Assembly: GCF_024623785.1 (NCBI RefSeq)
Contig: NZ_JANKBZ010000016.1
Location: 62,001 to 126,000, forward strand
Origin: Archangium lipolyticum
GTDB taxonomy: Bacteria > Myxococcota > Myxococcia > Myxococcales > Myxococcaceae
Direction: 5' to 3'
Length of the DNA: 64,000 nt
Positions within the stretch are counted from its first letter, which is position 1; each line of letters begins with the position of its first letter. Positions 11,457 through 62,165 of this stretch are shown here, in pieces. Made by a program: the position numbers and the translations under genes. The notes under the pieces were generated by a model. The model ran no database searches and was not told where the DNA came from. It saw only the letters and a program-made list of their open reading frames with translations.

Positions 11457-11572
11457 GAGATCCCCTGGTCTACTCCAGGTCGTCTCGTGCGCGTGATTCT
11501 TGTTCGCTGAGAGTGTAGAAATGCTGTAGCGCTAGATAATCCCGGGCACTTGGGACGTGCGGTAGCGGACGT

Positions 11573-39913: not shown

Positions 39914-40289
39914 TCACTTCTTGCCATAGTACAAGAAGCACCAGCCCCGGCATGCGGTCTCGCTCACGAGTTCCAAGCCCCAGCAGCCTGCCTTGAGTCT
40001 GGGATCGCGGATCGACCGACAGAAGCTTCGCAGAACTTCACCACCCGCCGCACAGGCGTCGAGGCATCGGGTCAGGTTGGGAGGTGGGCCTGCCTGGTCT
40101 TCTGGAGGCTGGTCCGTTCGAGGCTGCGGGATTGTTGTTGCAGTCGTCATCCCAAGGCGAGCTTTGAAAGCCCGCCCCACGCAGGTTCATGCTCGGAGCG
40201 CATCCGGTAAAGGCCAGGACCGCTGTCAATGCCGCTCCTACCCGGCTACGCCACGCGCTCCTGCCCTGGGTAGATCGTGCTTGTCGCAT
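39914..40289 (-). pseudogene. Cys-rich lipoprotein, apparently frameshifted
   Basis: The frame from the ATG at 40289 gives a signal with lipobox (AVLAFTGCAPS) and the start SMNLRGAGFQSSPWDDDC, then becomes low-quality sequence and stops at 40038. A second frame, shifted by one, carries the rest: PNLTRCLDACAAGGEVLR, CRSIRDPRLKAGCWGLEL and CRGWCFLYYGKK, ending at 39914. Joined, they make about 125 residues with seven or so Cys. The switch must lie at about 40075-40150. Either a real disruption, a sequencing error or two overlapping genes. First gene of the toxin operon. Confidence 0.6.
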
Positions 40290-40379
40290 GTGCCACCAGG
40301 GGCGGCGGGGGGACTGCCGGGATGAGCCTTGTAGCGGGAGACCGTACGTGCTCCAGGGTTGGAACCCGAGGCGGGATAT

Positions 40380-40415
40380 ACCCTCACCCTGGCCCTCTCC
40401 CAGAGGGAGAGGGGA
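40380..40415 (+). repeat. Palindromic repeat, copy 7
   Basis: ACCCTCACCCTGG followed by the CCCTCTCCC-AGA-GGGAGAGGG hairpin in the 278-base gap between the divergent toxin operon and the fused M16 gene. The left flank GGAACCCGAGG resembles the longer unit seen at copies 1, 8 and 9. Confidence 0.9.
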
Positions 40416-40567
40416 CCTGCACGACTCCGCCTGCGTGCTCCCTCGTTTCCCCTCGTCCCCAGCCGCTCCCTCCCTTTTCTTCTTTTGGGAACATGGACGC
40501 GGCATGCCCGGTTGGTAGCTTCCGCACGCTGTCCCGGAACTCCCTCGCGAAAGCAGGCTTTCCCCGC

Positions 40568-43387
<2,820 letters not shown>

Positions 43388-44637: not shown

Positions 44638-45285
44638 TCAATCCAAAATCGACGCCTTCGTCGCGATGGCGCAGGCGATGGGCACCCCACCCGCGGGCCG
44701 GAGCTCCGGGGTGACGTCCTGGAACCCGCTGGCCCTCAGCAGCGCGGCGAGCTCCACGGCCGTCTCCTGGGAGGTCCGCGCGTTGGCTCCACTCGAGCGG
44801 GGTTGCACCGCGAGCACGAGGCGTCCACCCGGCTCGAGGACGCGGTGGAGCTCCCGGGTGACGGCGAAGGGCTCGGGCCAGAACTGCGCGGAGTTGATGG
44901 AGAAGGCCTTGTCGAAGGAGCCATCCGGAAAGGCGAGTGAACAGGCCTCTCCGGCGTGCAGCTCGACCCTGCCGGCGCGGATGGCCTCGGCATTGCGGCG
45001 CCTGGCCTGCCGCAGCATGACCTCGGATCGGTCCACTCCGGCGACGAAGGCGGCGATGCGGCTGACGCGGTGGATGTCGACACCCGGGCCGAAGCCAATC
45101 TCCAGGATGCGCTCGCCAGGGCGCGGGTCCACCAACTCGAGCACCGACAGGCTGCGCCCGCGGTTCTTCCAGGCCATGAGCCGGCCGGCGATCGCGCCCA
45201 GCAGCCCCTCTGGCCTGCCGAAGTGGCGCATCCAGCCGGGCATCTTCGAGCCCGCGACGAGCCGTGGAGGGGAGCCCTGGTGCAC
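44638..45285 (-). CDS. SAM-dependent methyltransferase (class I)
   Basis: 215 residues. The SAM loop is LEIGFGPGVDIHRV near residue 62, followed by VAGVDRSEVML, the acidic DGSFDKAFSINSAQFWPEP and EPGGRLVLAVQP. A small-molecule methyltransferase; substrate unknown. It starts three bases after the end of the cysteine desulfurase gene, so the two are one transcript. Confidence 0.9.
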   Translation of the reverse strand: MHQGSPPRLVAGSKMPGWMRHFGRPEGLLGAIAGRLMAWKNRGRSLSVLELVDPRPGERILEIGFGPGVDIHRVSRIAAFVAGVDRSEVMLRQARRRNAEAIRAGRVELHAGEACSLAFPDGSFDKAFSINSAQFWPEPFAVTRELHRVLEPGGRLVLAVQPRSSGANARTSQETAVELAALLRASGFQDVTPELRPAGGVPIACAIATKASILD

Positions 45286-47722: not shown

Positions 47723-48946
47723 ATGATGAGCCATTGCTTCATAAACACTGACCCGCAAATCACATGGAGGTCCGGCTTGTCTTCTTCTTCGGGAAATCCC
47801 GGTTCACGTCTCTATCAGTTTGGAATCCTGAGCGAGGTTTCCCAGAGGGAAGTTCGCAACCAGTTCGATGGATGTCGACTGTGTTGGGCCATCTCGGAGG
47901 AAGGGCAAAGACATCCAGCCAATATGATCGTCCATTCCACCGACGAGCACGTCATCCTGCCGGCGCTGGGGTCGATCATCGAGGGCTATGTGATGCTCGT
48001 CTCCAAGCGGCATCGCAGCTCGGTGGCCACGCTGAAGGCGCCCCAGGCGGACCAGGTGCAGCGGGAGATCGAATCCGTGCTCTCCCTGGTCCAGAAGCAG
48101 ACCCCCGCCACCCGCTGGGTGGTGTTCGAGCATGGCACCACGCTCGACTGTGGCCTCAAGGCCTGCTGTGTGGATCATCTCCACCTGCACCTTCTGCCCG
48201 TGGACATGGACCTGGCCGCGGATCTCGCCACCCGGCTGTCGTGCGAGGCGCGGCGCATCGAGGCCATGCACGAGCTGCGGCAGGTGCGTGAGTCCGGCAC
48301 CGCCGACAATTACATCTACGTCCGCAACCCGGACGGCGCGCACTACGTCCTCACCCCGCCCGCCTATTCCTCCCAGTTCGTCCGCCAGGTGCTCGCCGAG
48401 CGCAGCGGCAAGGGCGACCGCTGGAACTGGCAGCACCACCCCATGGAGGATGACTCGGTCAAGACGGTGCGCATGTTCCGCGACGCGGGCATCACCCCTC
48501 GCGGCATCTATTACGCCCACGCCATCGAGGATCTCTCCACCGCCGAGGTGAAGGAGAACATCCAGCAGGCCCGCGCCACGCTCGCCCGCCACTGCCCCCA
48601 GGCCACCCTGTTCTCCATGTACGAGCTCCTCGAGAAGTCGCTCAAGGAGATCGACCTGCCCGAGGACCGGCTCAATGCCTATCTCGTCGAGACCGAGCGC
48701 AAGTTCATCGAGGCGTCGGATCTGCTCATCGTCGACCTGGCGCGCCCCAACTGGCAGTACGTCGGCTCGCTGATGGAGATCGTCTACGCCGCCGAGGCGG
48801 GCATCCCCGTGGTGGCCATCGTGGGGGATTCCACCATCCAGGGGCGCCGCTGGCTCAAGGCCCACGTCACCCGCTTCGTGAAGACCGTGGACGAGGCCTT
48901 CGCGCTCGCGCCGAGTCTGCTTCCGAAGCCGGCGCAGCCCAGGTAG
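47723..48946 (+). CDS. HIT-domain protein fused to a nucleoside deoxyribosyltransferase-like domain
   Basis: 407 residues. The start is uncertain (two ATGs in a row, no strong ribosome site). Residues about 45-190 form a HIT-like domain: a CRLC pair, IVHSTDEHVILPALG, LVSKRHRSSVATL and the HIT triad DHLHLHLLPV. From about 265 on, a Rossmann-type domain has GIYYAHAIEDLS, ASDLLIVDLARP, YVGSLMEIVYAAEAGIPVVAIVG; the Glu in SLMEIV takes the place of the catalytic Glu in nucleoside deoxyribosyltransferases. The pairing suggests a nucleotide cleaver or sensor. Upstream of gpsA by 21 bases. Confidence 0.75.
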   Translation: MMSHCFINTDPQITWRSGLSSSSGNPGSRLYQFGILSEVSQREVRNQFDGCRLCWAISEEGQRHPANMIVHSTDEHVILPALGSIIEGYVMLVSKRHRSSVATLKAPQADQVQREIESVLSLVQKQTPATRWVVFEHGTTLDCGLKACCVDHLHLHLLPVDMDLAADLATRLSCEARRIEAMHELRQVRESGTADNYIYVRNPDGAHYVLTPPAYSSQFVRQVLAERSGKGDRWNWQHHPMEDDSVKTVRMFRDAGITPRGIYYAHAIEDLSTAEVKENIQQARATLARHCPQATLFSMYELLEKSLKEIDLPEDRLNAYLVETERKFIEASDLLIVDLARPNWQYVGSLMEIVYAAEAGIPVVAIVGDSTIQGRRWLKAHVTRFVKTVDEAFALAPSLLPKPAQPR

Positions 48947-48967
48947 TCCGCGGGGGGAAGACGGCTC

Positions 48968-49972
48968 ATGCGTGTCTGCGTTCTCGGCTCCGGCCCCTTT
49001 GGCACCTCGCTGGCCAACGTGTTGGCCGTGCATTGCGACCAGGTCTGGCTCTGGGGCCGCAACGAGCAGGTGGTGGCCAGCGTCAACGCGCGGCACGAGA
49101 ATGGCGTCTACCTGGCCGGCATTCCCCTCTCACCGAGGATCCGCGCCACGTTGTCCATGGAGGAGGCGCTGGAGGGCGCGCGGCTCGTGGTGTCCGCCGT
49201 CCCCTCGCACGTCACCCGCGAGGTGATGCGCGCCGCCCTCCCCCACCTGCCGTCCGGCGTTCCCCTCCTCACCGTGTCCAAGGCGCTCGAGAATGGGACG
49301 CTCTTCACCATGACGCAGCTGCTGGAGGACTGTCTGCCCCCGTCCTTCCACCCCTTCATCGCCCTGCTGTCCGGTCCCTCCTTCGCCCAGGAGCTGGCCC
49401 GGCGGCAGCCCACCACGGTGACGATCGCCGCCCGCGACGAGCAGGTGGCGCGCGACTGCCAGCGGCTGTTCCAGACCGAGACGCTCCGCACCTACACCAC
49501 CACGGATGTCATCGGGGTGGAGATTGGCGGGGCGTTGAAGAACGTCATCGCCCTCGCGGTGGGGATGACCGAGGGCCTGGGCTTTGGATTCAACACGCGC
49601 GCCTCCCTCATCACCTGGGGGCTGGAGGAGATTTCGCGGCTGGCCGTGCACCTGGGCGCCAACCCGCGCACCCTCAGCGGGCTGTCCGGCATGGGGGACC
49701 TGGTGCTCACCTGCACCGGGGAGCTGTCCCGGAGCTGGCAGGTGGGCTTCGAGCTGGCCAGGGACCGCGCCCTGGAGGACATCCTGCGCTCCATCAAGAA
49801 GCCCTCCATCGAGGGCGTGAAGACGGCCCTGAGCGCGCATGCGCTCTCGCAGCGCACCGGGGTGGAGCTGCCCATCTGCCACCAGGTGTACCTCGTCACC
49901 CACCAGGGCAAGCGCGCCCGCGACGCGATGACGGAAGTCGTCGAACGGCAGTTCCGGGAGGCCGCCGCGTAG
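48968..49972 (+). CDS. gpsA: Glycerol-3-phosphate dehydrogenase [NAD(P)+]
   Basis: 334 residues. Dinucleotide site MRVCVLGSGPFGTSLANVLA, then SGPSFAQELARRQPT and the family's EIGGALKNVIALAVGMTEGLGFGFN with the catalytic Lys, ending with HQVYLVTHQGKRARDAM. Makes sn-glycerol-3-phosphate for phospholipids. Normal length. Co-directional with the HIT fusion upstream and a small HIT protein 24 bases downstream. Confidence 0.96.
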   Translation: MRVCVLGSGPFGTSLANVLAVHCDQVWLWGRNEQVVASVNARHENGVYLAGIPLSPRIRATLSMEEALEGARLVVSAVPSHVTREVMRAALPHLPSGVPLLTVSKALENGTLFTMTQLLEDCLPPSFHPFIALLSGPSFAQELARRQPTTVTIAARDEQVARDCQRLFQTETLRTYTTTDVIGVEIGGALKNVIALAVGMTEGLGFGFNTRASLITWGLEEISRLAVHLGANPRTLSGLSGMGDLVLTCTGELSRSWQVGFELARDRALEDILRSIKKPSIEGVKTALSAHALSQRTGVELPICHQVYLVTHQGKRARDAMTEVVERQFREAAA

Positions 49973-49996
49973 GTCTATCCTCGCGTCGAGCCCCTC

Positions 49997-50380
49997 ATGT
50001 CGTCCTCCTCCTTCTTACAGGTCCCCCGGGAACGGTGGGTCGCGTCCAACCGGCTGGCCTTCGCCATCCGGGACGCCAACCCGGTGAGCCCGGGGCATAC
50101 GCTGGTGATTCCCCACCGGCTGGTGGCCACCTGGTTCGAGGCCTCGCAGGAGGAGCAGCACGCCCTCTTCGAGCTGGTGGACGAGGTGCGGCGCGAGCTG
50201 GACACGAGCCACCGGCCGGACGGGTACAACGTGGGCTTCAACGTGGGAGAGGCCGCGGGGCAGACGGTGTTCCACCTGCACGTGCACGTCATCCCTCGCT
50301 ACCGGGGAGACATGGAGGACCCGCGCGGCGGCGTGCGCCATGTCATCCCGAGCAAGGGGAACTACCTGCTGCCCAGGTAG
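49997..50380 (+). CDS. Small HIT-family protein
   Basis: 127 residues, a single HIT domain: IRDANPVSPGHTLVIPHR, GYNVGFNVGEAAGQTVFHLH and the triad FHLHVHVIPRY. A nucleotide hydrolase or transferase, Fhit/HinT-like. Directly follows gpsA and lies within 1.1 kb of a second, fused HIT protein. Confidence 0.93.
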   Translation: MSSSSFLQVPRERWVASNRLAFAIRDANPVSPGHTLVIPHRLVATWFEASQEEQHALFELVDEVRRELDTSHRPDGYNVGFNVGEAAGQTVFHLHVHVIPRYRGDMEDPRGGVRHVIPSKGNYLLPR

Positions 50381-50386
50381 GTGGCC

Positions 50387-51019
50387 TCAGCCCTCCCAGA
50401 GCGCGCCCAGCTCCAGTTGAAGAGGTGTGAAGGGCTCGGCGTGTACCCGCTCCTGTCCACCGTGCGTGCCCAGGCGCTTCCACCGGACGTCTTCCAGCCC
50501 GTACACCTCCAGCTCCTGGCGCAGCGGGTCCACCAGCCACAGGTGGCGCACGCCCTCCCGGGCGTAGACCCTCATCTTCTTCTCCCGGTCCAGCACCGCC
50601 GTGGAGGGGGAGAGCACCTCGCAGACCCAGTCCGGCGCCAGGGTGAAGCCCACCACCCGGGGCATCTCCGGCATGCGCTCCCGACGCCAGCCGGCCAGGT
50701 CCGGCACCAGCACGTCCTCGCCCAGGTGCAGTTCGGGTTCCATGAGGAGCAGCCAGCCTCCCGGGCCACCGCGTCCCCGGTGGAAGGGCCCGTGAAGCTC
50801 ACCGTGCAGGACCGCCGCCGCGAGCGCGTGCGGTGAGGCCGGCCGGGGGCTCACGTGCAGCTCGCCGTCCAGCAGCTCCGCCACGAGGTGGGCAGGCACT
50901 GCCTCCAGGTCCGCGTAGGTCGCCTTGCGCTTCTGCCCTCCGCCCATGTCCCGAGCATGGGCAGCCGGGCGGGCCTCTTCAAGGGGGCTCCAAGGCACAC
51001 CGCTGGTTTCGGTGCTCAT
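50387..51019 (-). CDS. Uma2-family protein, duplicate A
   Basis: 210 residues. VPDLAGWRRERMPEM, WVCEVLSPSTAVLDREKKMRV, YAREGVRHLWLVDPLRQEL give the PD-(D/E)xK-like core (Asp, Glu, Lys). The N-terminal YADLEAVPAHLVAELLDGEL is the family start. Very similar to duplicate B at 53446, 3,059 bases away in the same orientation, differing mainly near residues 65-80. Bounds the Septu genes on the left. Confidence 0.9.
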   Translation of the reverse strand: MSTETSGVPWSPLEEARPAAHARDMGGGQKRKATYADLEAVPAHLVAELLDGELHVSPRPASPHALAAAVLHGELHGPFHRGRGGPGGWLLLMEPELHLGEDVLVPDLAGWRRERMPEMPRVVGFTLAPDWVCEVLSPSTAVLDREKKMRVYAREGVRHLWLVDPLRQELEVYGLEDVRWKRLGTHGGQERVHAEPFTPLQLELGALWEG

Positions 51020-51128
51020 ACAAGCAGACTACACCCAACTTCAAACGTTGTGTAGCCCTGGATGACCGTGAAGGTGATCTCCTTCCGGGGCTCCGGCGGG
51101 CCGCTGCCTTCCGGGCGAGCGTGGGAGC
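50391..51128. repeat. Direct duplication, copy A (Uma2 gene plus upstream region)
   Basis: About 738 bases including the Uma2 gene, its upstream palindrome and about 75 bases further up, ending in the shared CGGGCGAGCGTGGGAGC. Matches 53450-54186. Confidence 0.85.
51029..51055 (-). promoter_or_regulatory. CTACAC/GTGTAG inverted repeat upstream of Uma2 duplicate A
   Basis: Six-base arms separated by 15 bases, ending ten bases before the Uma2 start codon. The same element sits before duplicate B (54088-54114), and a shortened form before the Uma2 gene at 60223. Its place suggests an operator or the promoter itself. Confidence 0.6.
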
Positions 51129-51152
51129 ACAAAAGGAGGCTCCCGGGTCACT

Positions 51153-51189
51153 TCCCCTCTCCCTCTGGGAGAGGGACGGGGTGAGGGTA
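51153..51189 (-). repeat. Palindromic repeat, copy 9
   Basis: Reverse orientation, between the Uma2 duplicate A and the PtuB gene. Matches copy 8 over about 70 bases including CCCTCGGGTTGCCAC. Confidence 0.9.
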
Positions 51190-51238
51190 GCGCGGTCCCT
51201 CGGGTTGCCACCGTGCTCACCCGTCGTGTTTCCAGGCA

Positions 51239-51979
51239 TCAGCGCAGGAAGGCGCGGACCATCGCGGCGTACTCCGCCGAGTCCTGCTGCATACGCTGGA
51301 GGAGCTTCCGTGCCTCCGTGGCCTCCGGAGCCCCAAGCTTGATGAGCTTCTGGAGCGCCTTCACGTAGGCCAGTCGGTCTCTGCGTCGCTCCGCGAGCGC
51401 TTCCCGCCCGAGCCCCAGGAGGTGGATCGTCGCCTCGCCGCGAGCGCTGCCTCCCACGGCGTAAGGCACTTCCTCCCGGAACGAGATGAAGGCCTCGGGG
51501 TCGTCCACCGCGGGGTCGAGCAGCAGCGGGTCTTCCGCCGACACCTCCTCTGAGTGACTCCGTGCGCGCCGCGCGGGAGTCCCCAAAGGGAAGAGGTTCC
51601 TCTTGAACCGCTGATTGCAGAGCGTGCAGGCCAGGAACAGGTTCGCCCACTCATAGGCGAGCCAGTAGTAGCCGGGCCGGCGCAGTGGCTCCTCTTCCTC
51701 CTGACGCCACCCGCCCTTGGGACGGAAGTGCTCGACGTCTCCGTAGGCGATGTGCGTGAGCTTCGATTCACAGAAGGCGCACTTGCCGTGCTGCGCCTCC
51801 AGGAGCGCCTGCTTGACGGTCTCGTGTCCGTAGATGTCCGGGTCGAAGTCGAACGACTTCCTGCCGCTCTCGTAGCTCCTCCGGGCACGCGAGTACGCCG
51901 TGCTCATGGCGCGCCGGGCACTCGCGCCCTTCGAGCGAAGGACCTCGGGGGGCTCGGCTGGCTTTCGGACGCGGATCAC
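51239..51979 (-). CDS. ptuB: HNH nuclease of the Septu type (PtuB-like)
   Basis: 246 residues from a GTG at 51979 whose start overlaps the ATPase gene stop (GTGA). HNH/treble-clef core: GKCAFCESKLTH, GDVEHFRPKGGW, WANLFLACTLCNQRFKRNL, giving CxxC, DVEHF-H and CxxC. This is the PtuB pattern (also the HNH of retron Ec78). The nuclease acts with PtuA, cutting nucleic acid when the phage triggers it. Second gene of a two-gene operon. Confidence 0.88.
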   Translation of the reverse strand: MIRVRKPAEPPEVLRSKGASARRAMSTAYSRARRSYESGRKSFDFDPDIYGHETVKQALLEAQHGKCAFCESKLTHIAYGDVEHFRPKGGWRQEEEEPLRRPGYYWLAYEWANLFLACTLCNQRFKRNLFPLGTPARRARSHSEEVSAEDPLLLDPAVDDPEAFISFREEVPYAVGGSARGEATIHLLGLGREALAERRRDRLAYVKALQKLIKLGAPEATEARKLLQRMQQDSAEYAAMVRAFLR

Positions 51980-53379
51980 TCCCGTCCATCCCGCAGGCGC
52001 GAGGCGGCGCGCTGGATGAGCTCGAGCGCTTCGAGCTCGGTGCTCGTCTCTCCCGCGGGCAATGGCCCGATGGCCTCGTCCAGCTCCCGCAGTCTGGCCT
52101 TGTCCCTGGGCGTCAGGCGCGGTCTGGACAGGAGCGCGGTCCGCTCCGCGAGGAACTTCTCGAGCTGCGGCGGCCGGGCGCTCTTCAGCCCGAACAGGTC
52201 ACTCGTGAGGATCTGGTCCACCCGCCAGCCCTGGATGGATTCCATGTCGTTGTCGATGACGACGTGGTCCCCCTCGCGCCGGAGGACCACGATGTTCGCA
52301 TCCGTCGCGCTCTGGACCACGAGCGGGCTGTGCGCGGTCACGATGAACTGCGTGTTGGGGAAACGCTCGGTCAGATAGCCGATGAGCTTGCGCTGCCACG
52401 TGGGATGCAGGTGGAGATCGATTTCATCCACGAGCACCACCGCCGGCTCGGCCAATGGATTGGGACTGTCGGGATAGCGCTCGAAGAGGCGGCTGGCGAG
52501 ATCCACCATCCAGGCGATGAGCGTGCGGTAGCCCAGGCTCAAATCCCGTATCGGTACCCAGCCGTACGGGGTCCGCACTTCCACCCGGGCCGAGGGGTTG
52601 CGCGCATCGGGTGGAGCGAAGCGCAGGTCGCTCACCTCGGGGAGCAGGTCGATCAGGAGCTGCTTGATGCGATCCCTCCTCTCCCGGGCTCCGCTCGTTC
52701 TTCCCCGTTCGATGGACTCCTTGCTGGCCGCGTAGTCCGCTTGCAGGAGCCACTCTTCCCCATTGCGCAGCGGGACGTCCTCGAGGAAGAGACTGTCGCT
52801 GGGCTGTGCCTCCTTCAGCGCGGACAACGAGCCAGCTCCCATCCGGCGGGTCGCTCCATAGCCGTAACACACCAGGTTGAGGAGGGACTCGGGGAACTCG
52901 TCTTCGATGTGTTGCGAGTAGGTTCCCCTTTCGCTCACCTTCAATGCATACCGGAATCGGGCGGGATGCTCCTGACCGCCCTTCGCCGCCATCAACCTTC
53001 CAGCCTTGAGCTCGGCTGACAGACGGGCCCCATCGGATTGATGACGAATGGGATACCCGGGCAGGCGCTGGCGCCGGAAGTACCCTTTGGGCACGTAGGG
53101 AGAAGGCTCGGCGGAGCTCGGATCGAACAGAGCAGGCTCGAAGGTGGTGAGCGCCTGCAGCAGGGTCGTCTTGCCCATGCCGTTGTTGCCCAGAATCACC
53201 GTCCATCTCGCCGGGCGTCCCTCATTCGTGGAAAGCCGCAGGGTCTGGGGTGGTCCAAAGCAGCGCACGTTCTCGAGGGTCAACGAGACGAAGTACACGG
53301 GCAGAGGGGTCTGCTGCTTGTGCGAGCCAGCCCGCTTGCGCTTTCCCAGCTGTGCTCTTCCCCGGGCTTTCGTGGCCAT
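51976..53379 (-). CDS. ptuA: AAA/ABC-type ATPase of the Septu type (PtuA-like)
   Basis: 467 residues. Walker A ILGNNGMGKTTLLQAL near residue 65, an ABC-signature-like DLSLGYRTLIAW, Walker B AVVLVDEIDLHLHPTWQRK and the His-switch ITAHSPLVVQSA-type end. A basic N-terminal tail leads in. As in Septu systems it is immediately upstream of an HNH gene. It would sense the phage and license PtuB. Confidence 0.9.
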   Translation of the reverse strand: MATKARGRAQLGKRKRAGSHKQQTPLPVYFVSLTLENVRCFGPPQTLRLSTNEGRPARWTVILGNNGMGKTTLLQALTTFEPALFDPSSAEPSPYVPKGYFRRQRLPGYPIRHQSDGARLSAELKAGRLMAAKGGQEHPARFRYALKVSERGTYSQHIEDEFPESLLNLVCYGYGATRRMGAGSLSALKEAQPSDSLFLEDVPLRNGEEWLLQADYAASKESIERGRTSGARERRDRIKQLLIDLLPEVSDLRFAPPDARNPSARVEVRTPYGWVPIRDLSLGYRTLIAWMVDLASRLFERYPDSPNPLAEPAVVLVDEIDLHLHPTWQRKLIGYLTERFPNTQFIVTAHSPLVVQSATDANIVVLRREGDHVVIDNDMESIQGWRVDQILTSDLFGLKSARPPQLEKFLAERTALLSRPRLTPRDKARLRELDEAIGPLPAGETSTELEALELIQRAASRLRDGRE

Positions 53380-53445
53380 GTCGTTCCTCGAAGGGTGCCC
53401 ACCTCGGCGCCAGACGAGGGCGGTGTACCACGGGTCTCACACGTC

Positions 53446-54078
53446 TCAGCGCGCCCAGAGCAGGCCCAGCTCCAGTTGCAGGGGCGTGAAGGGCTCGGCG
53501 TGCACCCGCTCCTGTCCGCCGTGCGTGCCCAGGCGCTTCCACCGGCCGTCTTCCAGCCCGTACACCTCCAACTCCTGGCGCAGTGGGTCCACCAGCCACA
53601 GGTGGCGCACGCCTTCCCGGGCGTAGACCCTCATCTTCTTCTCGCGGTCCAGCACCGCCGTGGACGGGGAGAGCACCTCGCAGACCCAGTCCGGTGCCAG
53701 GGTGAAGCCCACCACCTGGGGCATCTTCGGCATGCGCTCGCGACGCCAGCCAGCCAGGTCCGGCACCAGCACGTCTTCGCCGAGGTGCAGCTCGGGCTCG
53801 AAGAGCAGCAGACAGCCGCCAGGGCCACCCCTCCCCTGATCGAAGGGTCCATCGAGCTGCGCGTTCAGCCTCCCCGCCGCCCGCGCGTGCGGCGAGGCCG
53901 GCCGGGGGCTCACGTGCAGCTCGCCGTCCACCAGCTCCGCCACGCGGTGTGGAGGCACTGCCTCCAGGTCCGCGTAGGTCGCCTTGCGCTTCTGCCCTCC
54001 GCCCATGTCCCGAGCATGGGCAGCCGGGCGGGCCTCTTCAAGGGAGCTCCAGGGCACACTGCTGGCTTCGGTGCTCAT
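53446..54078 (-). CDS. Uma2-family protein, duplicate B
   Basis: 210 residues, paralog of the gene at 50387 with the same core (VPDLAGWRRERMPKM, WVCEVLSPSTAVLDREKKMRV). Differences cluster at residues about 65-90 (ARAAGRLNAQLDGPFDQGRG). Lies 67 bases upstream of the PtuA gene start in the opposite sense of order (that is, it precedes it in the transcription direction), so readthrough into Septu is possible. Confidence 0.9.
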   Translation of the reverse strand: MSTEASSVPWSSLEEARPAAHARDMGGGQKRKATYADLEAVPPHRVAELVDGELHVSPRPASPHARAAGRLNAQLDGPFDQGRGGPGGCLLLFEPELHLGEDVLVPDLAGWRRERMPKMPQVVGFTLAPDWVCEVLSPSTAVLDREKKMRVYAREGVRHLWLVDPLRQELEVYGLEDGRWKRLGTHGGQERVHAEPFTPLQLELGLLWAR

Positions 54079-54186
54079 ACGGGCACACTACACCCGATTC
54101 CAAACGTTGTGTAGCCCTGGGTGACTGGAAAGGTCACCATTCTTCACGTGCCCACGGGCCGCTGCCTCCCGGGCGAGCGTGGGAGC
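53450..54186. repeat. Direct duplication, copy B
   Basis: About 737 bases matching 50391-51128 in the same orientation. The 2.3 kb between the two copies contains exactly the Septu pair and one palindromic repeat. Confidence 0.85.
54088..54114 (-). promoter_or_regulatory. CTACAC/GTGTAG inverted repeat upstream of Uma2 duplicate B
   Basis: Same arms and same 15-base spacing as at 51029, ten bases before the start codon. Confidence 0.6.
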
Positions 54187-54205
54187 GGAGAAGAACTCGC
54201 CCGCG

Positions 54206-55552
54206 TCATCCCTCGCTGGTCACCTGGGCCGTCAGGGGCTCCGCCTGGGCGGGCTCCTCGCTCCACAGGAACGCGCAGGCCCCCAGTGCGAGCAGGAGCA
54301 TGATTCCCGCTCCCGTCTTCCTCAGCTGCGAGCGGCGCTGGGCGCTCTCCGAGGGCGCCTCCACCGGCGCACCCGCCGCCGGCCGGGGCTCCTGCAACTG
54401 GGGCGGTTTCTCCAGCCGGATGGTGGGCGCCTCCGACCGTTGCGGCGCCCTCTCCCTCAGCGTCACCGCGTCCGCCGCCTCCGGTCGGGTCGTGCCCTCC
54501 TTCTTCATCCGCAGCGCCACCGGCGCCACTGTCTCGCACGGCAATGCCGGCACGCGCTGCATGGGTCTCGGCGTCGGAGTCCGCTGCTGTTGCTGGGACC
54601 CGGTCATTCCACTCTCGACGACCGTCTTCTCCTCCCCGCGCTTCTCCATCACCCGCGCCAGCAGCCTCGACAGCTGCCACGCCCCCACCGGCTCCCCCGT
54701 GCCCAGGATGAACCGCTCGAGGTCCGCCTGCAGCGCTCGGCAGTCCGCATAGCGGTGCTCGCGCTCCTTCGCCATCGCCCGCTCCAGGATGCGCCGCAGC
54801 GCCGGCTGAAGCTCCGGCCTCCACTTCGTCACCGGCACCGGCTGCTCGTACAGGATGGCCCTCACCAACTCGCCCCCCGAGTCCGTCTCGTACGGCTTGT
54901 GCCCCGTGAGCAGCTCGTAGAGCACCACCCCCAGCCCGTACACGTCCATCCGGCGGTCCGTCTCCACTCCCCGGAAGCGCTCCGGCGGCATGTACGCCAG
55001 CTTCCCCTTCACCACCCCCGTCTGCGTCCGGAGCTCCTGGCCCGCCTCCTTCGCGATGCCGAAGTCCACCACCTTCACCGCTCCGTCTCGCGACAGCAGG
55101 ATGTTGTCCGGGCTGATGTCCCGGTGGATGATTTCCAATGGCTCGCCCGTGGCCGGGTCCGTCCGCTCGTGCGCGTACGCCAGGCCCTCACACACCGAGG
55201 CGATGATGCGCGCGCAGCTCGCCGGCGGCAGCTCCACCCCCGCCTCCCTCGCCCGCTTCAACAGCACCTTCAGGTTCAACCCGTCGACGTACTCCATCGC
55301 CAGGTACCAGGTGCCGTCCGCCTCTCCAAAGTCGAAGACTTGAACGATGTTCGGATGGTTGAGCCGCGCCGCCAGCCGCGCCTCCGCCAGGAACATCTCC
55401 ACGAACCGTTCGTCCGACGCCAGGTGCGGGAGGATGCGCTTGACCACCAGCTCCTTCTCGAAGCCCATCGGCCCCGTGGCTCGCGCGAGGTACACCTCGG
55501 CCATGCCTCCGGTCGCGAGCTTGTCGAGCACCTGATACCTGCCCAGCTTCAT
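54206..55552 (-). CDS. Ser/Thr protein kinase, membrane-anchored
   Basis: 448 residues. Kinase domain residues about 5-275: Gly loop [12 protein letters not shown], Lys in KELVVKRIL, catalytic [21 protein letters not shown] and the activation loop ending in [11 protein letters not shown] long Pro/Glu linker precedes one membrane helix near residue 415 ([15 protein letters not shown]) and a short outer tail. PknB-like in layout but without extracellular sensor domain. Monocistronic. Confidence 0.95.
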
Positions 55553-55855
55553 TCTGTCCTGCCCCCAGGTGGCACCCCACTGTGCTCACCCGGACCCCTA
55601 CGGGGAAGTGCTGGATTCCCTGTTCATCCGCTATCCGCCAGACATTCGTCCGCAGTGTCCGCCTGTTCACTGCTCGCCTCGCGGAAACAGTGGGCCGCAC
55701 TCCCCGTGCATTCCACCCCCACCCTTCTCGAATTGTCAGACAGAGAACCTATACCTCCGTCCGTGCGCGAGCCCGCGCAGGCCTCGTCCCGTGGCTCGCG
55801 CGCAGCGTGGCTCCCCTCCCGGGAGCCCGTTCCATCGAGGGGGAAGCTCATCACC
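55553..55855. other. Intergenic region between divergent genes
   Basis: 303 bases between the kinase (minus) and the ELWxxDGT lipoprotein (plus). A TATACC hexamer at about 55750 could be a -10 for the lipoprotein gene, but no good -35 is seen. A GAGGGGGAAG site lies before the lipoprotein ATG. Nothing else recognised. Confidence 0.4.
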
Positions 55856-58561
55856 ATGACACGTATTCGAAATGCAGTGGGTTGTCTGGCCACCGGTATG
55901 GCCATGCTCGGCGGTTGTGCGGGCCCCGAGGGCGGCGCCTCCGAGCCCGCTCCCAACGGCCAGCTCCCGGCCGCTCTCTCCGCCGGCACTCCCGTGCTGG
56001 TACGCGACTTCGTCCCAGGCTTCGACACCTCCGGCTCCAGCTCGCCGCAGGAGCTCGCCGCCTCCGGCAACACCGTCTTCTTCAGCGCCACCAACCCCTT
56101 CGTCGGCCGTGAGCTGTGGAAGACCGATGGCACCGAGGCCGGCACCGTCCTCGTCAAGGACCTCAACCCGGGCTCGGCCGACTCCAATCCCTCCTCCTTC
56201 GCCACCCTCGGCGGCATCGTCTACTTCTCCGCGCAGGAGCCCGGCTCCGGCTACGAGCTGTGGCGCACCGATGGCACCCCCGAGGGCACCTGGCGCGTCG
56301 TGGACCTCATCCCCGGCGCCACCTCCGGCGGCGCCTCCAACCTCACCGTCGTGGGCGGCTCGCTCTTCTTCACCGCCACCGATGGCGTGAATGGCTCCGA
56401 GCTGTGGGTGACCGATGGCACCCCCGAGGGCACCCGGCTCGTGAAGGACCTCAACCCCGGCTCCGCCGGCACCTACCTCTCCAACCTCACCGCGGCCGGT
56501 GGGTTCCTCTTCTTCACCCGCGATGACGGCGTGACGGGCACCGAGCTGTGGTTGAGCGATGGCACCGCCGAGGGCACCCGGCTCGTGCGCGACATCCGCC
56601 CCGGTTCCGCCGCCTCCTCGCCCCAGTCCCTGCGCGCCGTGGGCAGCGCCCTCTACTTCACCGCCGATGACGGCGTGAGCGGGCGCGAGCTGTGGAAGAG
56701 TGATGGCACCGAGGCCGGCACCGTGCGCGTGAAGGACCTCTGGCCGGGCTCGACCAGCTCCGAGCCCTCGTACCTGGTCGACCTGGGGGGCGCCCTCTAC
56801 TTCTCCGCCAACAACGGCGTGAGTGGCAACGAGCTGTGGCGCACCGATGGCACCGAGGCCGGCACCGTCCTCGTGAAGGACATCCGCGCCGGCGCCTCCA
56901 ACTCGGGCCCCCGTCTGACGGTGAAGATGGGCGGCGTGCTCTACTTCGTCGCCGATGACAGCACCTCGGGTGGCGACCTGTGGCGCAGCGATGGCACCGC
57001 CGCCGGCACCTGGCGCGTCGTCGACCTCCCGCTCGGCTTCTACCAGTACGTGCTCCTGCTCACCGCCACCGACAACATGGTGTACTTCCACATCGCGGGC
57101 GGCTCGAACTCCTACTCGTTCCTGCGCAGCGATGGCACGGCCTCGGGCACGTGGACGCTCCGCTACGTCACTCCTCCCGATGGCGGCCTGCCCCGGAAGA
57201 TGGCCGCCCTGGGCAATGTCCTCCTCTTCGACTCCAACGAGAGCCCCAACGGCCGCGAGCTGTGGCGCACCGATGGCTCCGTCACCTCGATGGTGCGAGA
57301 CATCTCCCGCCAGCCCAGGTCCTCCTCGCCCAACCTGCTGACGGAGCTCGGTGGCTCGCTGTACTTCCGCGGCAACGACGGCACCGGGTATGACCTGTGG
57401 AAGAGCGATGGCTCCTCCGCCGGCACCGTGCGCGTCCGGGGCTCCGCCTCCCCCTTCTTCGCCAACACCTCCGAGTGGGTGAAGATGGGCGGGCAGCTCT
57501 ACTTCTCCGCCAGCGAGTCGGCCACCGGCATCGAGCTGTGGACCACCGATGGCACCGCCGCCGGCACCCGCATCGTCGCCGACGCCGCGCCCGGCACCGA
57601 CAGCATCTACCCCGGGCAGCTCCTGGTGGGTGGGAGCACGATCTTCTTCAGGGGCTACTCCTCCACCGCCGGCCAGGAGCTGTGGAAGAGCGATGGCACC
57701 GCCGCCGGCACCGTCCTCGTGAAGGACATCCGCCCCGGTACCTCCAGCGGCCTGGGGAGCAGCAGCTATGACCTGTCCATGGCCTGGGCCGGCGGCACGC
57801 TCTTCTTCACCGCCGATGATGGGGTGAACGGGCGCGAGCTGTGGAAGAGCGATGGCACCGCCGCCGGCACCTCGCTCGTGGCCAACGTCGTCGCGGGGGC
57901 CACGGGCTCCAACCCCATGGAGCTGACGGCCTCGGGGGGCCGGGTCTTCTTCGTCGCCCAGGAGGCCACGTCGCAGTGGGGCCTGTGGAGCTCGGATGGC
58001 ACCGCCGCCGGCACGGTGCGGCTGCCCGTCACCTTCCCCACCTCGAGCTCCCGTCCCAGCGTGAAGCCCACCGACGTGGGCGGCGTCCTCTTCTTCTCCG
58101 CCAACAACTCGCTGTGGCGCACGGATGGGACGCCCGAGGGCACGCTCGTCGTCGGCTCCTTCCGCTGGGTCGACAGCCTGGTGGCCTTCAATGGCTCGCT
58201 CTTCTTCCGGGCCGGGGACACCGCGCACGGCGGCGAGCTGTGGAAGAGCGATGGCACGGCCGAGGGCACGGTGCTCGTCCGCGACATCCGGCCCGGTCCC
58301 ACCAACGGACTGGACCCCGCGCCGATGTTCACCGTCCTCCCCAGCGGCCTGCTGGCGTTCCGCGCCGATGATGGCGTGAATGGCATGGAGACGTGGGTGT
58401 CGGATGGGACCGGGGCGGGTACCCGGCTGCTCGCGAACCTCGCGCCCTCCAGCGTCTCCTCGTGGCCCCTGTACTTCACCCAGGTCGGCGACAGCCTCTA
58501 CGTCTCCGCCTCCGATGAGATGTCCGGCCAGGAGCCCTGGCGCATCCCCCTGCTGCCGTAG
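55856..58561 (+). CDS. ELWxxDGT-repeat lipoprotein
   Basis: 901 residues from the ATG at 55856, which begins a lipoprotein signal (GMAMLGGCAGPEG). The rest is about 17-18 repeats of about 46-50 residues, each ending in a version of ELWKTDGTxAGTxLVKDI, with LYFSAxDGVxG strands before it. Two copies are degenerate (FLRSDGTASGT; QEPWRI at the end). Each unit is probably one blade of stacked beta-propellers. Surface protein, no enzyme motif. Function unknown. Confidence 0.9.
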   Translation: MTRIRNAVGCLATGMAMLGGCAGPEGGASEPAPNGQLPAALSAGTPVLVRDFVPGFDTSGSSSPQELAASGNTVFFSATNPFVGRELWKTDGTEAGTVLVKDLNPGSADSNPSSFATLGGIVYFSAQEPGSGYELWRTDGTPEGTWRVVDLIPGATSGGASNLTVVGGSLFFTATDGVNGSELWVTDGTPEGTRLVKDLNPGSAGTYLSNLTAAGGFLFFTRDDGVTGTELWLSDGTAEGTRLVRDIRPGSAASSPQSLRAVGSALYFTADDGVSGRELWKSDGTEAGTVRVKDLWPGSTSSEPSYLVDLGGALYFSANNGVSGNELWRTDGTEAGTVLVKDIRAGASNSGPRLTVKMGGVLYFVADDSTSGGDLWRSDGTAAGTWRVVDLPLGFYQYVLLLTATDNMVYFHIAGGSNSYSFLRSDGTASGTWTLRYVTPPDGGLPRKMAALGNVLLFDSNESPNGRELWRTDGSVTSMVRDISRQPRSSSPNLLTELGGSLYFRGNDGTGYDLWKSDGSSAGTVRVRGSASPFFANTSEWVKMGGQLYFSASESATGIELWTTDGTAAGTRIVADAAPGTDSIYPGQLLVGGSTIFFRGYSSTAGQELWKSDGTAAGTVLVKDIRPGTSSGLGSSSYDLSMAWAGGTLFFTADDGVNGRELWKSDGTAAGTSLVANVVAGATGSNPMELTASGGRVFFVAQEATSQWGLWSSDGTAAGTVRLPVTFPTSSSRPSVKPTDVGGVLFFSANNSLWRTDGTPEGTLVVGSFRWVDSLVAFNGSLFFRAGDTAHGGELWKSDGTAEGTVLVRDIRPGPTNGLDPAPMFTVLPSGLLAFRADDGVNGMETWVSDGTGAGTRLLANLAPSSVSSWPLYFTQVGDSLYVSASDEMSGQEPWRIPLLP

Positions 58562-58616
58562 CCTCCGGGCCCGGGGCCTCGTACCGGCTCCGGGCCCGGT
58601 GTCTTCTCGGGCCCGC

Positions 58617-60167
58617 TCAACCCCGGATGAGCGTGACGGTGCGTCCCCCGGGCGTGGTGGCCTGCTCGGCTCGCGTGCGCGCGGCCAGCGTCGGCTGCCC
58701 CGTCCGGCGGTCGAAGATGACCAGCCAGCCTGTCTCCTGGCCCAATCCCTCCAGGTAGCCGTCGAGCTGGGTCAGTCCCTCGGCCAGCGGGTCCGGCTCC
58801 TTGTCTCGCCAGACCTTGATTTCGATGGCCAGCGTGTCCGGCCCGTAGCGCACGCACAGGTCCATCCGCCCCCGGCCGATGGCGTACTCGCGCTCGATGG
58901 AGCCGCCTCCGTTCACCACCCGGTGCAGGAAGGCCATCAGCACCAGGTGGGGAGCGATCTCGTGGTACGGCGCGGTGGCCAGCAGTGGCTCGCCGTGCTG
59001 TCGCCAGAAGGCGAGGAAGGCGTCCCGCAGGCGCTCCGTGTCCAGACGCCCATCCTCCCTCTTCCACGTGGGCTGAAGGGGCGGCAGCGTGTCACGCGTT
59101 CCGCTGGAGAGCTGGCGCACGATGATCTCCCGGTAGATGGGATTGGCCACCTCCAGCGTGCCCTGGGCATCGCGGCGCAGCAGGCCCAGGTCGATGGCGA
59201 AGCGCCTGTCATCCTCGGGCACCTCCCCCAGCAGTCCACCCGCCAGCATGGGCTCGAGGATGGCGCGGATGCGAGGCTCGCGCAGGCGCTCGGCCAGGCT
59301 GTCCAGGTGTGTCTCCTGGCGCTCCACCAGTACCGCCCTGGCGCGCTCGATGTCCTCGCGGCGGATGGGCCGGGCGGTGTCGGGGACGAGCTCCTCGACG
59401 GCGACCCGGGCCAGGGCGTTGACCAGCCAGGGCTGGCCCTGTGTCAGCTCGAAGGCTCGTGCGAGGGCCTCGGGCTCGAAGCGCTGGCCCGTGTCCCGCG
59501 TGTGCTGGGCGTAGAGCTCGGCGACCTCCTCCTCGGTGAAGTCCCGCAGCGTGAGCGAGCGCACCATGATGTTGAACGGACTGGACGTTCCCAGGTGAGC
59601 CCTCTCGCCGGAGGTCACCTTGTAGTCGCGCACGTCCCGTAGCCCGATGAGCGCCAGCGACGCGGGGAAGTGCTCGGGGCGGTTGCGGTAGCCATCGCGC
59701 AGCTGGCGAAGCACGGAGAGCAGGACCTCGTCCCGGAGCGCGTCGATCTCGTCCAGGAAGACGACGAGGGGCCTCGGAGAGGACTCGGCCCAGGCCGACA
59801 GCGCGGAGCCGATACGGCTGCCCGCGGGTGCCTCCGGGAAGGGCGGGGGTTGCAACTCGGGGGGGAGTTGGGCGCGCATCGCCAGGCGCCAGCTCTCGAG
59901 CATGGCGGCCTCGGCCGCTCCAGTGTCACTGGGAAAGGCGGCCCCCACCTCCATGGAGACCAGTGCGGCCAGGTAGGGGCCCTCGGCGGTGAGCTCGCGG
60001 GCCAGCGCGAGCATGGCCGTCGTCTTGCCCAACCGCCGAGGAGCATGGAGGACGAAATAGCCCTGTGGGTCGATGAGCCGGCGCAACTCGGGGAGGCGCC
60101 GCAGGGCCGGCAGCATGTAGTGGCGGTCCGGCCGGCACGGACCAGCGGTGTTGAACCAGCGGGGCAT
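58617..60167 (-). CDS. AAA-like ATPase with C-terminal nuclease-like domain
   Basis: 516 residues from the ATG at 60167. The ATPase has Walker A VLHAPRRLGKTTAMLAL near residue 41, Walker B PLVVFLDEIDALRDE, an arginine-rich sensor stretch and a helical lid (LTQGQPWLVNALARVAVEEL), as in the AAA-like/archaeal ATPase group. The C-terminal part has GRGRMDLCVRYG and LAIEIKVWRDKEPDP, a PD-(D/E)xK-like Asp...ExK core. Such proteins are often mobile or defence-related. Stands between two unrelated genes. Confidence 0.82.
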   Translation of the reverse strand: MPRWFNTAGPCRPDRHYMLPALRRLPELRRLIDPQGYFVLHAPRRLGKTTAMLALARELTAEGPYLAALVSMEVGAAFPSDTGAAEAAMLESWRLAMRAQLPPELQPPPFPEAPAGSRIGSALSAWAESSPRPLVVFLDEIDALRDEVLLSVLRQLRDGYRNRPEHFPASLALIGLRDVRDYKVTSGERAHLGTSSPFNIMVRSLTLRDFTEEEVAELYAQHTRDTGQRFEPEALARAFELTQGQPWLVNALARVAVEELVPDTARPIRREDIERARAVLVERQETHLDSLAERLREPRIRAILEPMLAGGLLGEVPEDDRRFAIDLGLLRRDAQGTLEVANPIYREIIVRQLSSGTRDTLPPLQPTWKREDGRLDTERLRDAFLAFWRQHGEPLLATAPYHEIAPHLVLMAFLHRVVNGGGSIEREYAIGRGRMDLCVRYGPDTLAIEIKVWRDKEPDPLAEGLTQLDGYLEGLGQETGWLVIFDRRTGQPTLAARTRAEQATTPGGRTVTLIRG

Positions 60168-60222: not shown

Positions 60223-61113
60223 TCACTCGTCCCAGATGAGGCTCAGGTCCAGCTCGTGGGCCTCGAAGGGCTCGGCGCGGATGAGGCCGTCGCCCTGGTG
60301 GGTGGCGAGCAGCTGGTAGCCCGTCTCCTCCAGGCGCAGCACCTCCAGCGTGCGCGTCTCCGGGTCCGCCTTCCACACGTGCCGCACTCCCGCTCGTGCG
60401 TAGAGCCGCAGCTTCGTCTCCCAGTTCAACGCCCGCGACGTGGCGGTGCGCACCTCGCACAGCCAGTCCGGCGCGAGCCGCAGCGTCGCTCCTCCCAGCG
60501 GTTGCGGCATGCGCTCTCGCAGCCAGCCCCCCAGGTCCGGCACCAGCACGTCCTCGCCCAGGTGCAGCTCCGGCTCGAACATCAGCCGCCACCCTCCCGG
60601 CCCTCCCCGGCCCTTGCTGAACGGTCCTCCCAGCTCTCCGAACAGCTCCGTCGCCGTCACCATGTGCGCCGCGCCTGGATGGGGACACGCGTACAGCTCG
60701 CCGTCCACCAGCTCCGCCACGTGGTCGAACGGTATCGTCTCCAGGTCCGCGTACGTCGCCTTGCGCTTCTCGCCGCTGGCGCTCGCGTCCGGAGGCTTGC
60801 TCTCCGCGCTAGCCTCCTGCCGCGCGGGTTCTGGGGCGCCGCTGGATGCACCGGTCTCTTGCCGCGCGGGTTCTGGCGCTCCGCGGGACTCAAGGGCCTC
60901 CTGCCGTGCAGGTTCCGACGCTCCGCTGGACTCACTGACCTCTTCTTGCCGCGCAGGTGTCGGTGCGCCGCTGGACTCACTGGTCTCTTGCTGTGCAGGG
61001 CCCGGTGCTCCGCTGGGCTCATGGGTCTCTTGCCGGGCGGGTGCCGGTGCCCCGCTGGAGTCACTGGTCTCTTGCTGCGCGGGTGCCGGTGCCCCGCTGG
61101 ATTCCGTGTTCAT
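60223..61113 (-). CDS. Uma2-family protein with a repetitive N-terminal tail
   Basis: 296 residues. Residues 6-104 are seven tandem units of 14-15 residues (like SSGAPEPARQET). The Uma2 domain follows (YADLETIPFDHVAELVDGEL, VPDLGGWLRERMPQ, WLCEVRTATSRALNWETKLRL, YARAGVRHVWKADPETRTL), with the PD-(D/E)xK-like residues kept. Same promoter-proximal element as the two other paralogs, in a shortened form. Confidence 0.9.
   Translation of the reverse strand: MNTESSGAPAPAQQETSDSSGAPAPARQETHEPSGAPGPAQQETSESSGAPTPARQEEVSESSGASEPARQEALESRGAPEPARQETGASSGAPEPARQEASAESKPPDASASGEKRKATYADLETIPFDHVAELVDGELYACPHPGAAHMVTATELFGELGGPFSKGRGGPGGWRLMFEPELHLGEDVLVPDLGGWLRERMPQPLGGATLRLAPDWLCEVRTATSRALNWETKLRLYARAGVRHVWKADPETRTLEVLRLEETGYQLLATHQGDGLIRAEPFEAHELDLSLIWDE
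60802..61098. repeat. 42-bp minisatellite encoding the Uma2 N-terminal tail
   Basis: Seven near-identical units of about 42 bases (one of 45). Length differences between strains would be expected. Confidence 0.9.
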
Positions 61114-61328: not shown

Positions 61329-62165
61329 GTGCGCTTCGGGTCCTGGCTCCTCCTCCTGTGTCTCCTGTCCTCCCTCCCGGCCGCCGCACGCGAGGGGCTC
61401 GGCGCACCCGTGCTCCGCAGGCGCACGCTCGTGGTCTCCTCACGTCCCGGCGAGGCTCCTCCCCTGTCCCTGCATGTGGCCGTGGGGTTGCCCACGCTCG
61501 TCCAGTTCGAACCGCCGCTGGCGCGAGGCTCCCCGAGGCTCCCGGCGGGCGAGGCGCGCATCCAACTCGTCCCCGTGAGCGCGGACTCGTGGGTCCTCGT
61601 TCCCACCTCTCCCCTCTCCGAGGGCGAGCAGGTGCTCCTCACCTTGGATGCCGTGCCTGGCTCCGAATCCCTTCGCTTCTCGCTCGTCACCCGGCGTGGC
61701 GAGGTGGATGCGCGGGTGCGCGTGGTGCTCGCTCTCTCGGACTCTTTAGAGGACGCCTCCGAGGCCATGGCGCTCCAGCTCCTGGATGCGCCGGATGCTC
61801 GCGCCACGCTTGCCCTACCCCAGCAGGTGGTGGAACTCCACGCGGGGCGCTCGCGCGCGCAGGTCGACTCCGTGCTCTGGATGGGCCGACGCTTCTTCTC
61901 CACCGTGTCCGTGAGGGGCAGTGGAGAAGGTGCTCCTCCCTGGAGGTTGGTGCAGGTGCGGTTGCGGACGGTGCTCGCGGATGATTCCTGGCTGGAGTGG
62001 TCCGCCCGTCTCGTCTCTGGACGGGTGGGCGCGGGACGCCAGCACCACGTGTTCACCAGCCAGCTTCCAGAGGAGGCCTCGCGCCTGGAGCTGGCCCTGG
62101 ATGGAGAGGACGTCCCGGGTGAGTTCCAGCCGCTCCCGGGGAGAGAGGGGCCGGTGTCCCCGTGA
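61329..62165 (+). CDS. DUF2381-family protein, exported
   Basis: 278 residues from a GTG at 61329 (GGAGG seven bases upstream); an earlier GTG lacks a site. Signal peptide FGSWLLLLCLLSSLPAAARE. Then PLSLHVAVGLPTLVQFEPPL, VPTSPLSEGEQVLLTLDAVP and a run of alternating strands and helices, the DUF2381 pattern known mainly from myxobacteria. Function unknown. Its stop overlaps the kinase start (GTGA), the usual pairing. Confidence 0.85.
   Translation: MRFGSWLLLLCLLSSLPAAAREGLGAPVLRRRTLVVSSRPGEAPPLSLHVAVGLPTLVQFEPPLARGSPRLPAGEARIQLVPVSADSWVLVPTSPLSEGEQVLLTLDAVPGSESLRFSLVTRRGEVDARVRVVLALSDSLEDASEAMALQLLDAPDARATLALPQQVVELHAGRSRAQVDSVLWMGRRFFSTVSVRGSGEGAPPWRLVQVRLRTVLADDSWLEWSARLVSGRVGAGRQHHVFTSQLPEEASRLELALDGEDVPGEFQPLPGREGPVSP

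What the first reader, a model, noticed from the sequence alone, without database searches (positions are those of the whole stretch)
50391..54186. Septu (PtuA-PtuB) defence pair placed exactly between two directly repeated Uma2 genes
A 467-residue ATPase and a 246-residue HNH nuclease with the overlap and motifs of Septu lie between two 737-738-base direct repeats in the same orientation. The repeats include each Uma2 gene, its upstream palindrome and about 75 bases more. This could be a recombination-driven cargo site: unequal crossover between the repeats would excise or duplicate the defence genes.
Basis: partly seen in the sequence, partly recalled or inferred. Interest (0 to 1): 0.8.

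Follow-up and report, generated by a model that had tools for sequence, protein, structure and literature searches.

The report
Septu defence pair between duplicated Uma2 genes
A genuine two-gene anti-phage system (Septu) lies between two near-identical copies of a common bacterial gene; a close relative has one copy and no Septu at the same place, but the evidence does not show that recombination between the copies moves the defence genes.

Summary
Window 51239-53379 (minus strand) encodes PtuB and PtuA, with strong PADLOC matches. They lie between direct repeats 50386-51150 and 53445-54208, 88% identical, each with a 210-aa Uma2 gene. The sister species G003 has kinase - one Uma2 - HIT there and no Septu, so the empty site asked for exists.

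The proposed mechanism is only partly supported. Three other species of the genus carry Septu (decayed in one) in the same chromosomal neighbourhood, with a single Uma2 upstream. So this linkage looks older than the flanking duplication. G003's Uma2 is not a simple crossover product of today's copies: of 90 informative sites 37 are A-like and 53 B-like, and the nine nearest HIT are all B-like.

My reading: an ordinary Septu in a patchy locus, bracketed by an Uma2 duplication that makes RecA-dependent deletion of about 3.06 kb possible. Side result: Uma2 3' ends coincide with synteny breaks in the closest species pair (6 of 14 against 9 of 97 other genes), not replicated in a second pair.

The parts
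51976..53379 (-). ptuA, AAA/ABC-type ATPase of Septu (467 aa)
   Evidence: PADLOC PDLC00304 E 3.2e-170 over residues 23-466; Pfam AAA_21; matches PDB PtuA chains incl. 8ee4; K70, D318 and E319 invariant in a 6-row alignment
51239..51979 (-). ptuB, HNH nuclease of Septu (246 aa), GTG start, 4-nt overlap with ptuA
   Evidence: PADLOC PDLC00339 E 3.6e-101 over residues 1-246; CAFC, GDVEHFRPK and CTLCN blocks, H84 and N122 invariant in a 5-row alignment; no Pfam hit
53446..54078 (-). Uma2 gene, copy B (kinase side), 210 aa
   Evidence: Pfam PF05685 E 8.3e-29; 92% aa identity to the single Uma2 of G003 at this locus
50387..51019 (-). Uma2 gene, copy A (HIT side), 210 aa
   Evidence: Pfam PF05685 E 3.3e-25; 89% aa identity to copy B, 86% to G003
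53445..54208 (.). direct repeat B: Uma2 plus upstream DNA up to and including the kinase stop codon
50386..51150 (.). direct repeat A: same unit, starting at a copy of the kinase stop codon
51151..53444 (.). spacer holding the Septu cassette. Sequence shared with other Septu loci of the family begins at about 53432 (upstream of ptuA); downstream of ptuB it is shared with G005 up to a REP-like palindrome at about 51153-51180
   Evidence: alignment of five Septu loci, read by eye
54088..54114 (.). short inverted repeat upstream of Uma2 B (possible operator, weak)
51029..51055 (.). short inverted repeat upstream of Uma2 A (possible operator, weak)
54206..55552 (-). flanking protein kinase gene (outer edge of the locus, also in G003)
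   Evidence: Pfam Pkinase; G003 84% aa
49997..50380 (+). flanking HIT-family gene (other outer edge, also in G003)
   Evidence: Pfam HIT; G003 95% aa

Best explanation
This is a Septu anti-phage operon in a patchy chromosomal locus of an Archangium-type myxobacterium. PtuA (ATPase) and PtuB (HNH nuclease) most likely act as other Septu pairs do: PtuA senses infection and licenses PtuB, which cuts nucleic acid (tRNA-Tyr in an E. coli Septu) and stops phage multiplication at the cell's expense. Uma2 is a neighbour that is common in these genomes, not a needed partner. In this strain the Uma2 gene with its upstream 130 bp exists on both sides of Septu, giving 88% identical direct repeats, so a RecA-dependent crossover could delete (or, between sister chromosomes, duplicate) about 3.06 kb with Septu. 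Shown: family identity, repeats, the empty state in G003, and linkage of Septu to this Uma2 in other species. Inferred: anti-phage activity and the recombination outcome. Order of events (inferred): Septu beside a single Uma2 came first, the second Uma2 later.
For: Profiles: PtuA 3.2e-170, PtuB 3.6e-101. Empty syntenic site in G003, with 93% DNA identity over 6.5 kb on the HIT side and 89% over 2.3 kb on the kinase side. A single Uma2 lies upstream of Septu on the same strand in G005, G001 and G004, and the gene at window 40277-43387 has its counterpart directly beyond Septu in G005, about 3 kb beyond in G001 and about 7 kb beyond in G004. Septu is absent from this region in G002 and G003 and decayed in G004, so the locus is patchy. 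Informative sites in the Uma2 coding part run in blocks (15 runs in 55 sites, shuffle p 0.001), consistent with past recombination among copies. Exact A/B tracts of 92 bp and 27-37 bp. Known Septu mechanism: passages of PMC13096335.
Against: No excision or duplication is observed. G003's Uma2 is not explained as a B-to-A crossover product. PtuA divergence is nearly flat: 74-78% to the window in G001, G004, G005 and G032 and 75-79% between G005 and the other three relatives. A neighbouring conserved protein is 82-84% to the window in the three genus species, 88-89% between G005 and G001 or G004, and 75% to the window in G032. So Septu may have been exchanged between lineages rather than inherited, which weakens the order of events. 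The Uma2 tree leaves A, B and G003 unresolved among themselves, and shared derived sites favour no pair clearly (AB 9, AG003 7, BG003 12). The block pattern can also come from one fast-evolving stretch of copy A.
Confidence: 0.65

Rival explanations
1. Cargo gain: the ancestor had kinase-Uma2-HIT, as G003 has now. In this strain DNA carrying Septu and an Uma2 recombined into the resident Uma2 (Campbell-type), which left two Uma2 copies around Septu.
For: G003 has exactly that empty state. Copy B, the kinase-side copy, is 92% to G003 and copy A 86%. G003 is B-like at all nine HIT-proximal informative sites. PtuA divergence is flat across species.
Against: Septu is already in this neighbourhood beside Uma2 in three other species, so a loss followed by a regain at nearly the same place is needed. 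Copy A's upstream DNA matches the local kinase-stop-to-Uma2 stretch, found in 2 of the 6 genus genomes, G000 and G003, rather than the upstream DNA of the Uma2 beside Septu in G005, G001 or G004.
Confidence: 0.25
2. G003 lost Septu by a crossover between the two Uma2 repeats (loop-out).
For: The outer junctions in G003 are those predicted: the kinase side as for copy B, the HIT side as for copy A.
Against: Inside the repeat the HIT-side part of G003 is B-like, not A-like. The best forward chimera explains 53 of 90 sites, which is the same as copy B alone, and no shuffle did worse. It survives only if the crossover lay in the last few bases, predates the divergence of A and B, or was overwritten by gene conversion.
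Confidence: 0.2
3. Uma2 is a functional third component of this Septu (for example a second nuclease or a regulator).
For: Uma2 lies within 3.7 kb upstream of Septu on the same strand in all 4 of the 6 genus genomes that have this Septu. PADLOC's candidate family PDC-S03 matches Uma2.
Against: Uma2 is kept without Septu in G002 and G003. No Uma2 was found in the DNA held around 8 non-myxobacterial PtuA relatives or around the second, distant Septu of G000 and G003 (the profile used was built from Uma2 ORFs of this genus only and could miss remote ones). Another gene lies between Uma2 and Septu in G005, and an ORF fills the gap in G004.
Confidence: 0.07

Closest known systems
Septu (PtuA-PtuB), e.g. 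E. coli Septu EcB88
   Same: ATPase and HNH nuclease genes in one operon, strong PADLOC profile matches, Walker and HNH residues conserved
   Different: PtuA and PtuB score below the NCBIfam cut-offs set for the retron Ec78 proteins (149 of 500 bits and 56 of 150 bits); PtuB found no PDB chain at E 0.001
Retron-Eco7/Ec78 PtuAB module
   Same: homologous effector pair
   Different: no Rfam match in 49900-54600 and no reverse transcriptase among the 8 neighbouring proteins scanned with Pfam
Uma2 family (PF05685)
   Same: both flank genes exceed the Pfam cut-off; copy B matches PDB chains 6okh, 9y1l and 3ot2
   Different: duplicated as direct repeats around a defence operon; the three other species of the genus with this Septu have one copy beside it
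Defence genes carried between recombining repeats (attL/attR islands, phage satellites; recalled)
   Same: direct repeats border defence genes and an empty site exists
   Different: only ptuA and ptuB lie between the repeats, no integrase or transposase; the repeats are whole genes, not att sites

Membership tests
Septu | PtuA-family ATPase | tested here: met
   PDLC00304 E 3.2e-170, near full length
Septu | PtuB-family HNH nuclease | tested here: met
   PDLC00339 E 3.6e-101, residues 1-246
Septu | ptuA and ptuB adjacent in one operon | tested here: met
   GTGA overlap at 51976-51979; one transcript not tested
Septu | intact Walker A/B and HNH motifs | tested here: met
   K70, D318, E319 of PtuA and H84, N122 of PtuB invariant in alignments A1 and A2; residue roles taken from passages of PMC13096335, not aligned to that protein here
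Septu | protects against phage | not testable with these tools
   needs plaque assays
Retron type I-A (PtuAB effector) | reverse transcriptase and msr-msd RNA beside PtuAB | tested here: not met
   no Rfam match at gathering thresholds in 49900-54600; no RT domain in the 8 proteins of 47723-55552 scanned with Pfam
Uma2 (PF05685) | profile above curated cut-off | tested here: met
   89 and 101 bits against 27
Excisable segment bounded by direct repeats | empty site with a single repeat copy in a relative | tested here: met
   G003
Excisable segment bounded by direct repeats | the single copy is a chimera of the two repeats | tested here: not met
   gene conversion could hide it
Excisable segment bounded by direct repeats | excision or duplication observed in cells | not testable with these tools
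   needs junction PCR or read depth

The most novel reading that the evidence does not exclude
In Archangium-type myxobacteria the many Uma2 genes (16-23 matches per genome) act as dispersed homology arms and preferred insertion points. Accessory genes, defence operons among them, come and go immediately downstream of Uma2 stop codons, and local Uma2 duplications (such as the pair around Septu) are the footprints of that traffic.
Probability: 0.15. Interest if true: 0.65.

Novelty: new member of a known kind. Interest (0 to 1): 0.33.

Why it matters
It gives a concrete, testable case of how a defence operon may be gained or lost without its own integrase, between repeats of a resident gene family. 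If the weaker wider hint held, Uma2 genes, which are numerous here and of unclear function, would turn out to be hubs of genome plasticity. As it stands the finding is mainly a well-supported Septu annotation with an informative evolutionary context.

Tried and rejected
Uma2 as obligate Septu partner: rejected because it is kept without Septu in G002 and G003, and no Uma2 was found around 8 of the 10 genome contigs PtuA relatives (the other two are Archangium) or around the second Septu. The DNA held there was 10.8 to 21.4 kb per locus, so some flanks are one-sided or short. Retron: no RNA family match, no RT domain in the 8 proteins scanned. G003 as a simple loop-out chimera: tested and not supported. 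Origin of copy A's divergent block (about 50756-50832) from another Uma2 locus fetched so far: best outside match 57 of 77 bases against 55 of 77 for copy B, so no donor found. PADLOC on 9 proteins around the loci gave two weak leads only (see Noticed in passing).

Uma2 3' ends as breakpoints: in G000 against G003, 6 of 14 Uma2 genes against 9 of 97 other genes have a break within 60 bp (p 0.0036); in G001 against G002, 3 of 9 against 14 of 58 (p 0.41). For 5' starts within 200 bp neither pair is significant (3 of 14 against 9 of 97; 2 of 9 against 14 of 58). Pooled 3' ends: 9 of 23 against 23 of 155, p 0.009. The idea came from seeing the first pair and the distance limits were chosen afterwards. 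Uma2 genes not wholly inside a syntenic chain were dropped by the script: 4 of 18 in the first pair (those in L173 and L176 and two of three in the window, including the copy beside Septu) and 6 of 15 in the second; 2 of 15 loci of the second pair gave no chain. Gene calls are homology-supported ORFs; in five loci (L174, L175, L206, L208, L209) an opposite-strand ORF was taken for Uma2, and none of these had a break within the limits. Uma2 clustering: 11 pairs within 15 kb in five genomes against about 2 expected.

Paper searches: Uma2 with Septu, with endonuclease, and with recombination and duplication, and defence system with direct repeats and related words; I saw listings only, in which no title or shown abstract start describes this arrangement. 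They cover only the held open-licence library.
Full report
What is there. The window lies in a 12.6-Mb genome of 75 contigs. At 51239-53379 on the minus strand lie ptuA and ptuB with a 4-nt overlap. PtuA matches PADLOC PDLC00304 at 3.2e-170 and PtuB matches PDLC00339 at 3.6e-101. PtuA also matches solved PtuA chains including 8ee4. PtuB found no PDB chain at the default limit and no Pfam family, and the NCBIfam models, made for the retron Ec78 versions, match only below their cut-offs. No Rfam family matched in 49900-54600, and none of the 8 neighbouring proteins scanned with Pfam is a reverse transcriptase, so this looks like stand-alone Septu, not a retron.

The repeats. Copies A (50386-51150) and B (53445-54208) are direct repeats, 88% identical, each with a 210-aa Uma2 gene (PF05685; 91% DNA identity between the genes). 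The repeat unit runs from the stop codon of the neighbouring kinase gene to just past the Uma2 stop; copy A carries its own copy of that kinase stop. The longest exact shared tract is 92 bp, enough in principle for RecA recombination (general knowledge). Uma2 genes are common here: copy B finds 21 matches in its own genome (itself included), the best other being copy A.

The empty site. G003, the nearest relative (93% DNA identity over 6.5 kb on the HIT side, 89% over 2.3 kb on the kinase side), has the same flanks, kinase on one side and HIT on the other, with one Uma2 and no Septu.

History. Comparing wider regions, the gene at window 40277-43387 (an M16-type peptidase by its HxxEH motif; that name is recalled, not searched) has its counterpart directly beyond Septu in G005, about 3 kb beyond in G001 and about 7 kb beyond in G004. 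In these three, a single Uma2 lies upstream on the same strand, 1.25 kb, 3.6 kb and 0.86 kb before ptuA. G002 keeps the Uma2 and that gene without Septu between them. G004's Septu is decayed, its ptuA running into the middle of ptuB. G032, in another genus, has Septu with an Uma2 7.4 kb away on the other side, about 0.5 Mb from its counterpart of the peptidase gene. The segment 44638-50380 (from a cysteine-desulfurase-like gene's neighbour to HIT) is shared with G003 and with G019 of another genus. Hence Septu beside this Uma2 looks older than the duplication that brackets it here. Against simple inheritance, PtuA identity is nearly flat: 74-78% to the window in G001, G004, G005 and G032 and 75-79% between G005 and the other three relatives. 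The peptidase is 82-84% to the window in the three genus species, 88-89% between G005 and G001 or G004, and 75% to the window in G032. Exchange of Septu between lineages is therefore also likely. No branch of the Septu tree was well supported.

Loss or gain in the closest pair. In the Uma2 tree A, B and G003 form one supported group, unresolved inside. If G003 had looped Septu out between A and B, its Uma2 should be B-like towards the kinase and A-like towards HIT. Of 90 informative sites 37 are A-like and 53 B-like, and the nine nearest HIT are all B-like; the predicted chimera is no better than shuffled sites. The pattern is blocky in the coding part (p 0.001; whole repeat p 0.04), as gene conversion would give, though one fast-changing stretch in copy A contributes much of it. 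Polarised sites favour no pair clearly: 9 shared derived for A and B, 7 for A and G003, 12 for B and G003. Loss through the repeats and gain with a duplication therefore both remain open.

Is Uma2 a partner? Among 10 PtuA relatives found in named genomes, Uma2 was found nearby only in the two Archangium loci; the other 8 have none in the DNA held. The second, distant Septu of G000 and G003 (PtuA 46%) has none either. The profile used was built from Uma2 ORFs of this genus and could miss remote members. I conclude that the linkage is a feature of this lineage.

A wider hint. In 15 loci of this genome compared with G003, a synteny break lies within 60 bp of the 3' end in 6 of 14 counted Uma2 genes, against 9 of 97 other genes (p 0.0036). 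In G001 against G002 it is 3 of 9 against 14 of 58 (p 0.41). In six loci the identity of G000 and G003 is 86-98% in the last 100 bases up to the matched gene end and 46-66% in the next 100. Uma2 genes also cluster: 11 pairs within 15 kb in five genomes against about 2 expected. This is suggestive, was found after the fact and was not replicated.

Mechanism. From passages of PMC13096335: an E. coli Septu needs the Walker motifs of PtuA and the HNH of PtuB, cleaves tRNA-Tyr in its variable loop during infection, and behaves like abortive infection. That this Archangium Septu does the same is inference from family membership.

Verdict. The recombination-driven cargo idea is plausible but undemonstrated; the Uma2-Septu linkage with a single Uma2 in three other species and the non-chimeric Uma2 of G003 count against it.

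Noticed in passing
window 55714-60100: About 4.4 kb, including a protein of 48-residue ELWxxDGT-type repeats (to 58561, +), is present here and absent in G003 between the kinase gene and a third Uma2 gene (60223-61113 -).
   Followed up: partly
L086 8405-9827 (G004): Decayed Septu: the ptuA reading frame is broken near its start and runs directly into the middle of ptuB.
   Followed up: no
L084 10086-10916 (G001): ptuB of Archangium lansinium carries an in-gene insertion and a divergent C-terminus.
   Followed up: no
L217 about 7828-11565 (G002) against L203 (G001): Tandem 0.7-kb Uma2 duplication in G002, with about 2.4 kb of extra DNA directly after the Uma2 3' end, resembling the arrangement around Septu.
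   Followed up: no
L169 7046-9758 (G000:C4): About 2.7 kb present in this genome and absent in G003, starting 18 bp after the matched 3' end of another Uma2 gene.
   Followed up: no
L090 8058-10138 (G000:C35) and L089 8687-10767 (G003): A second, distant Septu pair (PtuA 46% identical) in this genome and in G003, with no Uma2 found nearby.
   Followed up: partly
window 44638-45282 and 62162-63970: PADLOC matches to mad2 (E 6.4e-20, part of the profile) and to PD-T4-6-type kinases (E 7.8e-43); the second may simply be one of many ordinary kinases.
   Followed up: no
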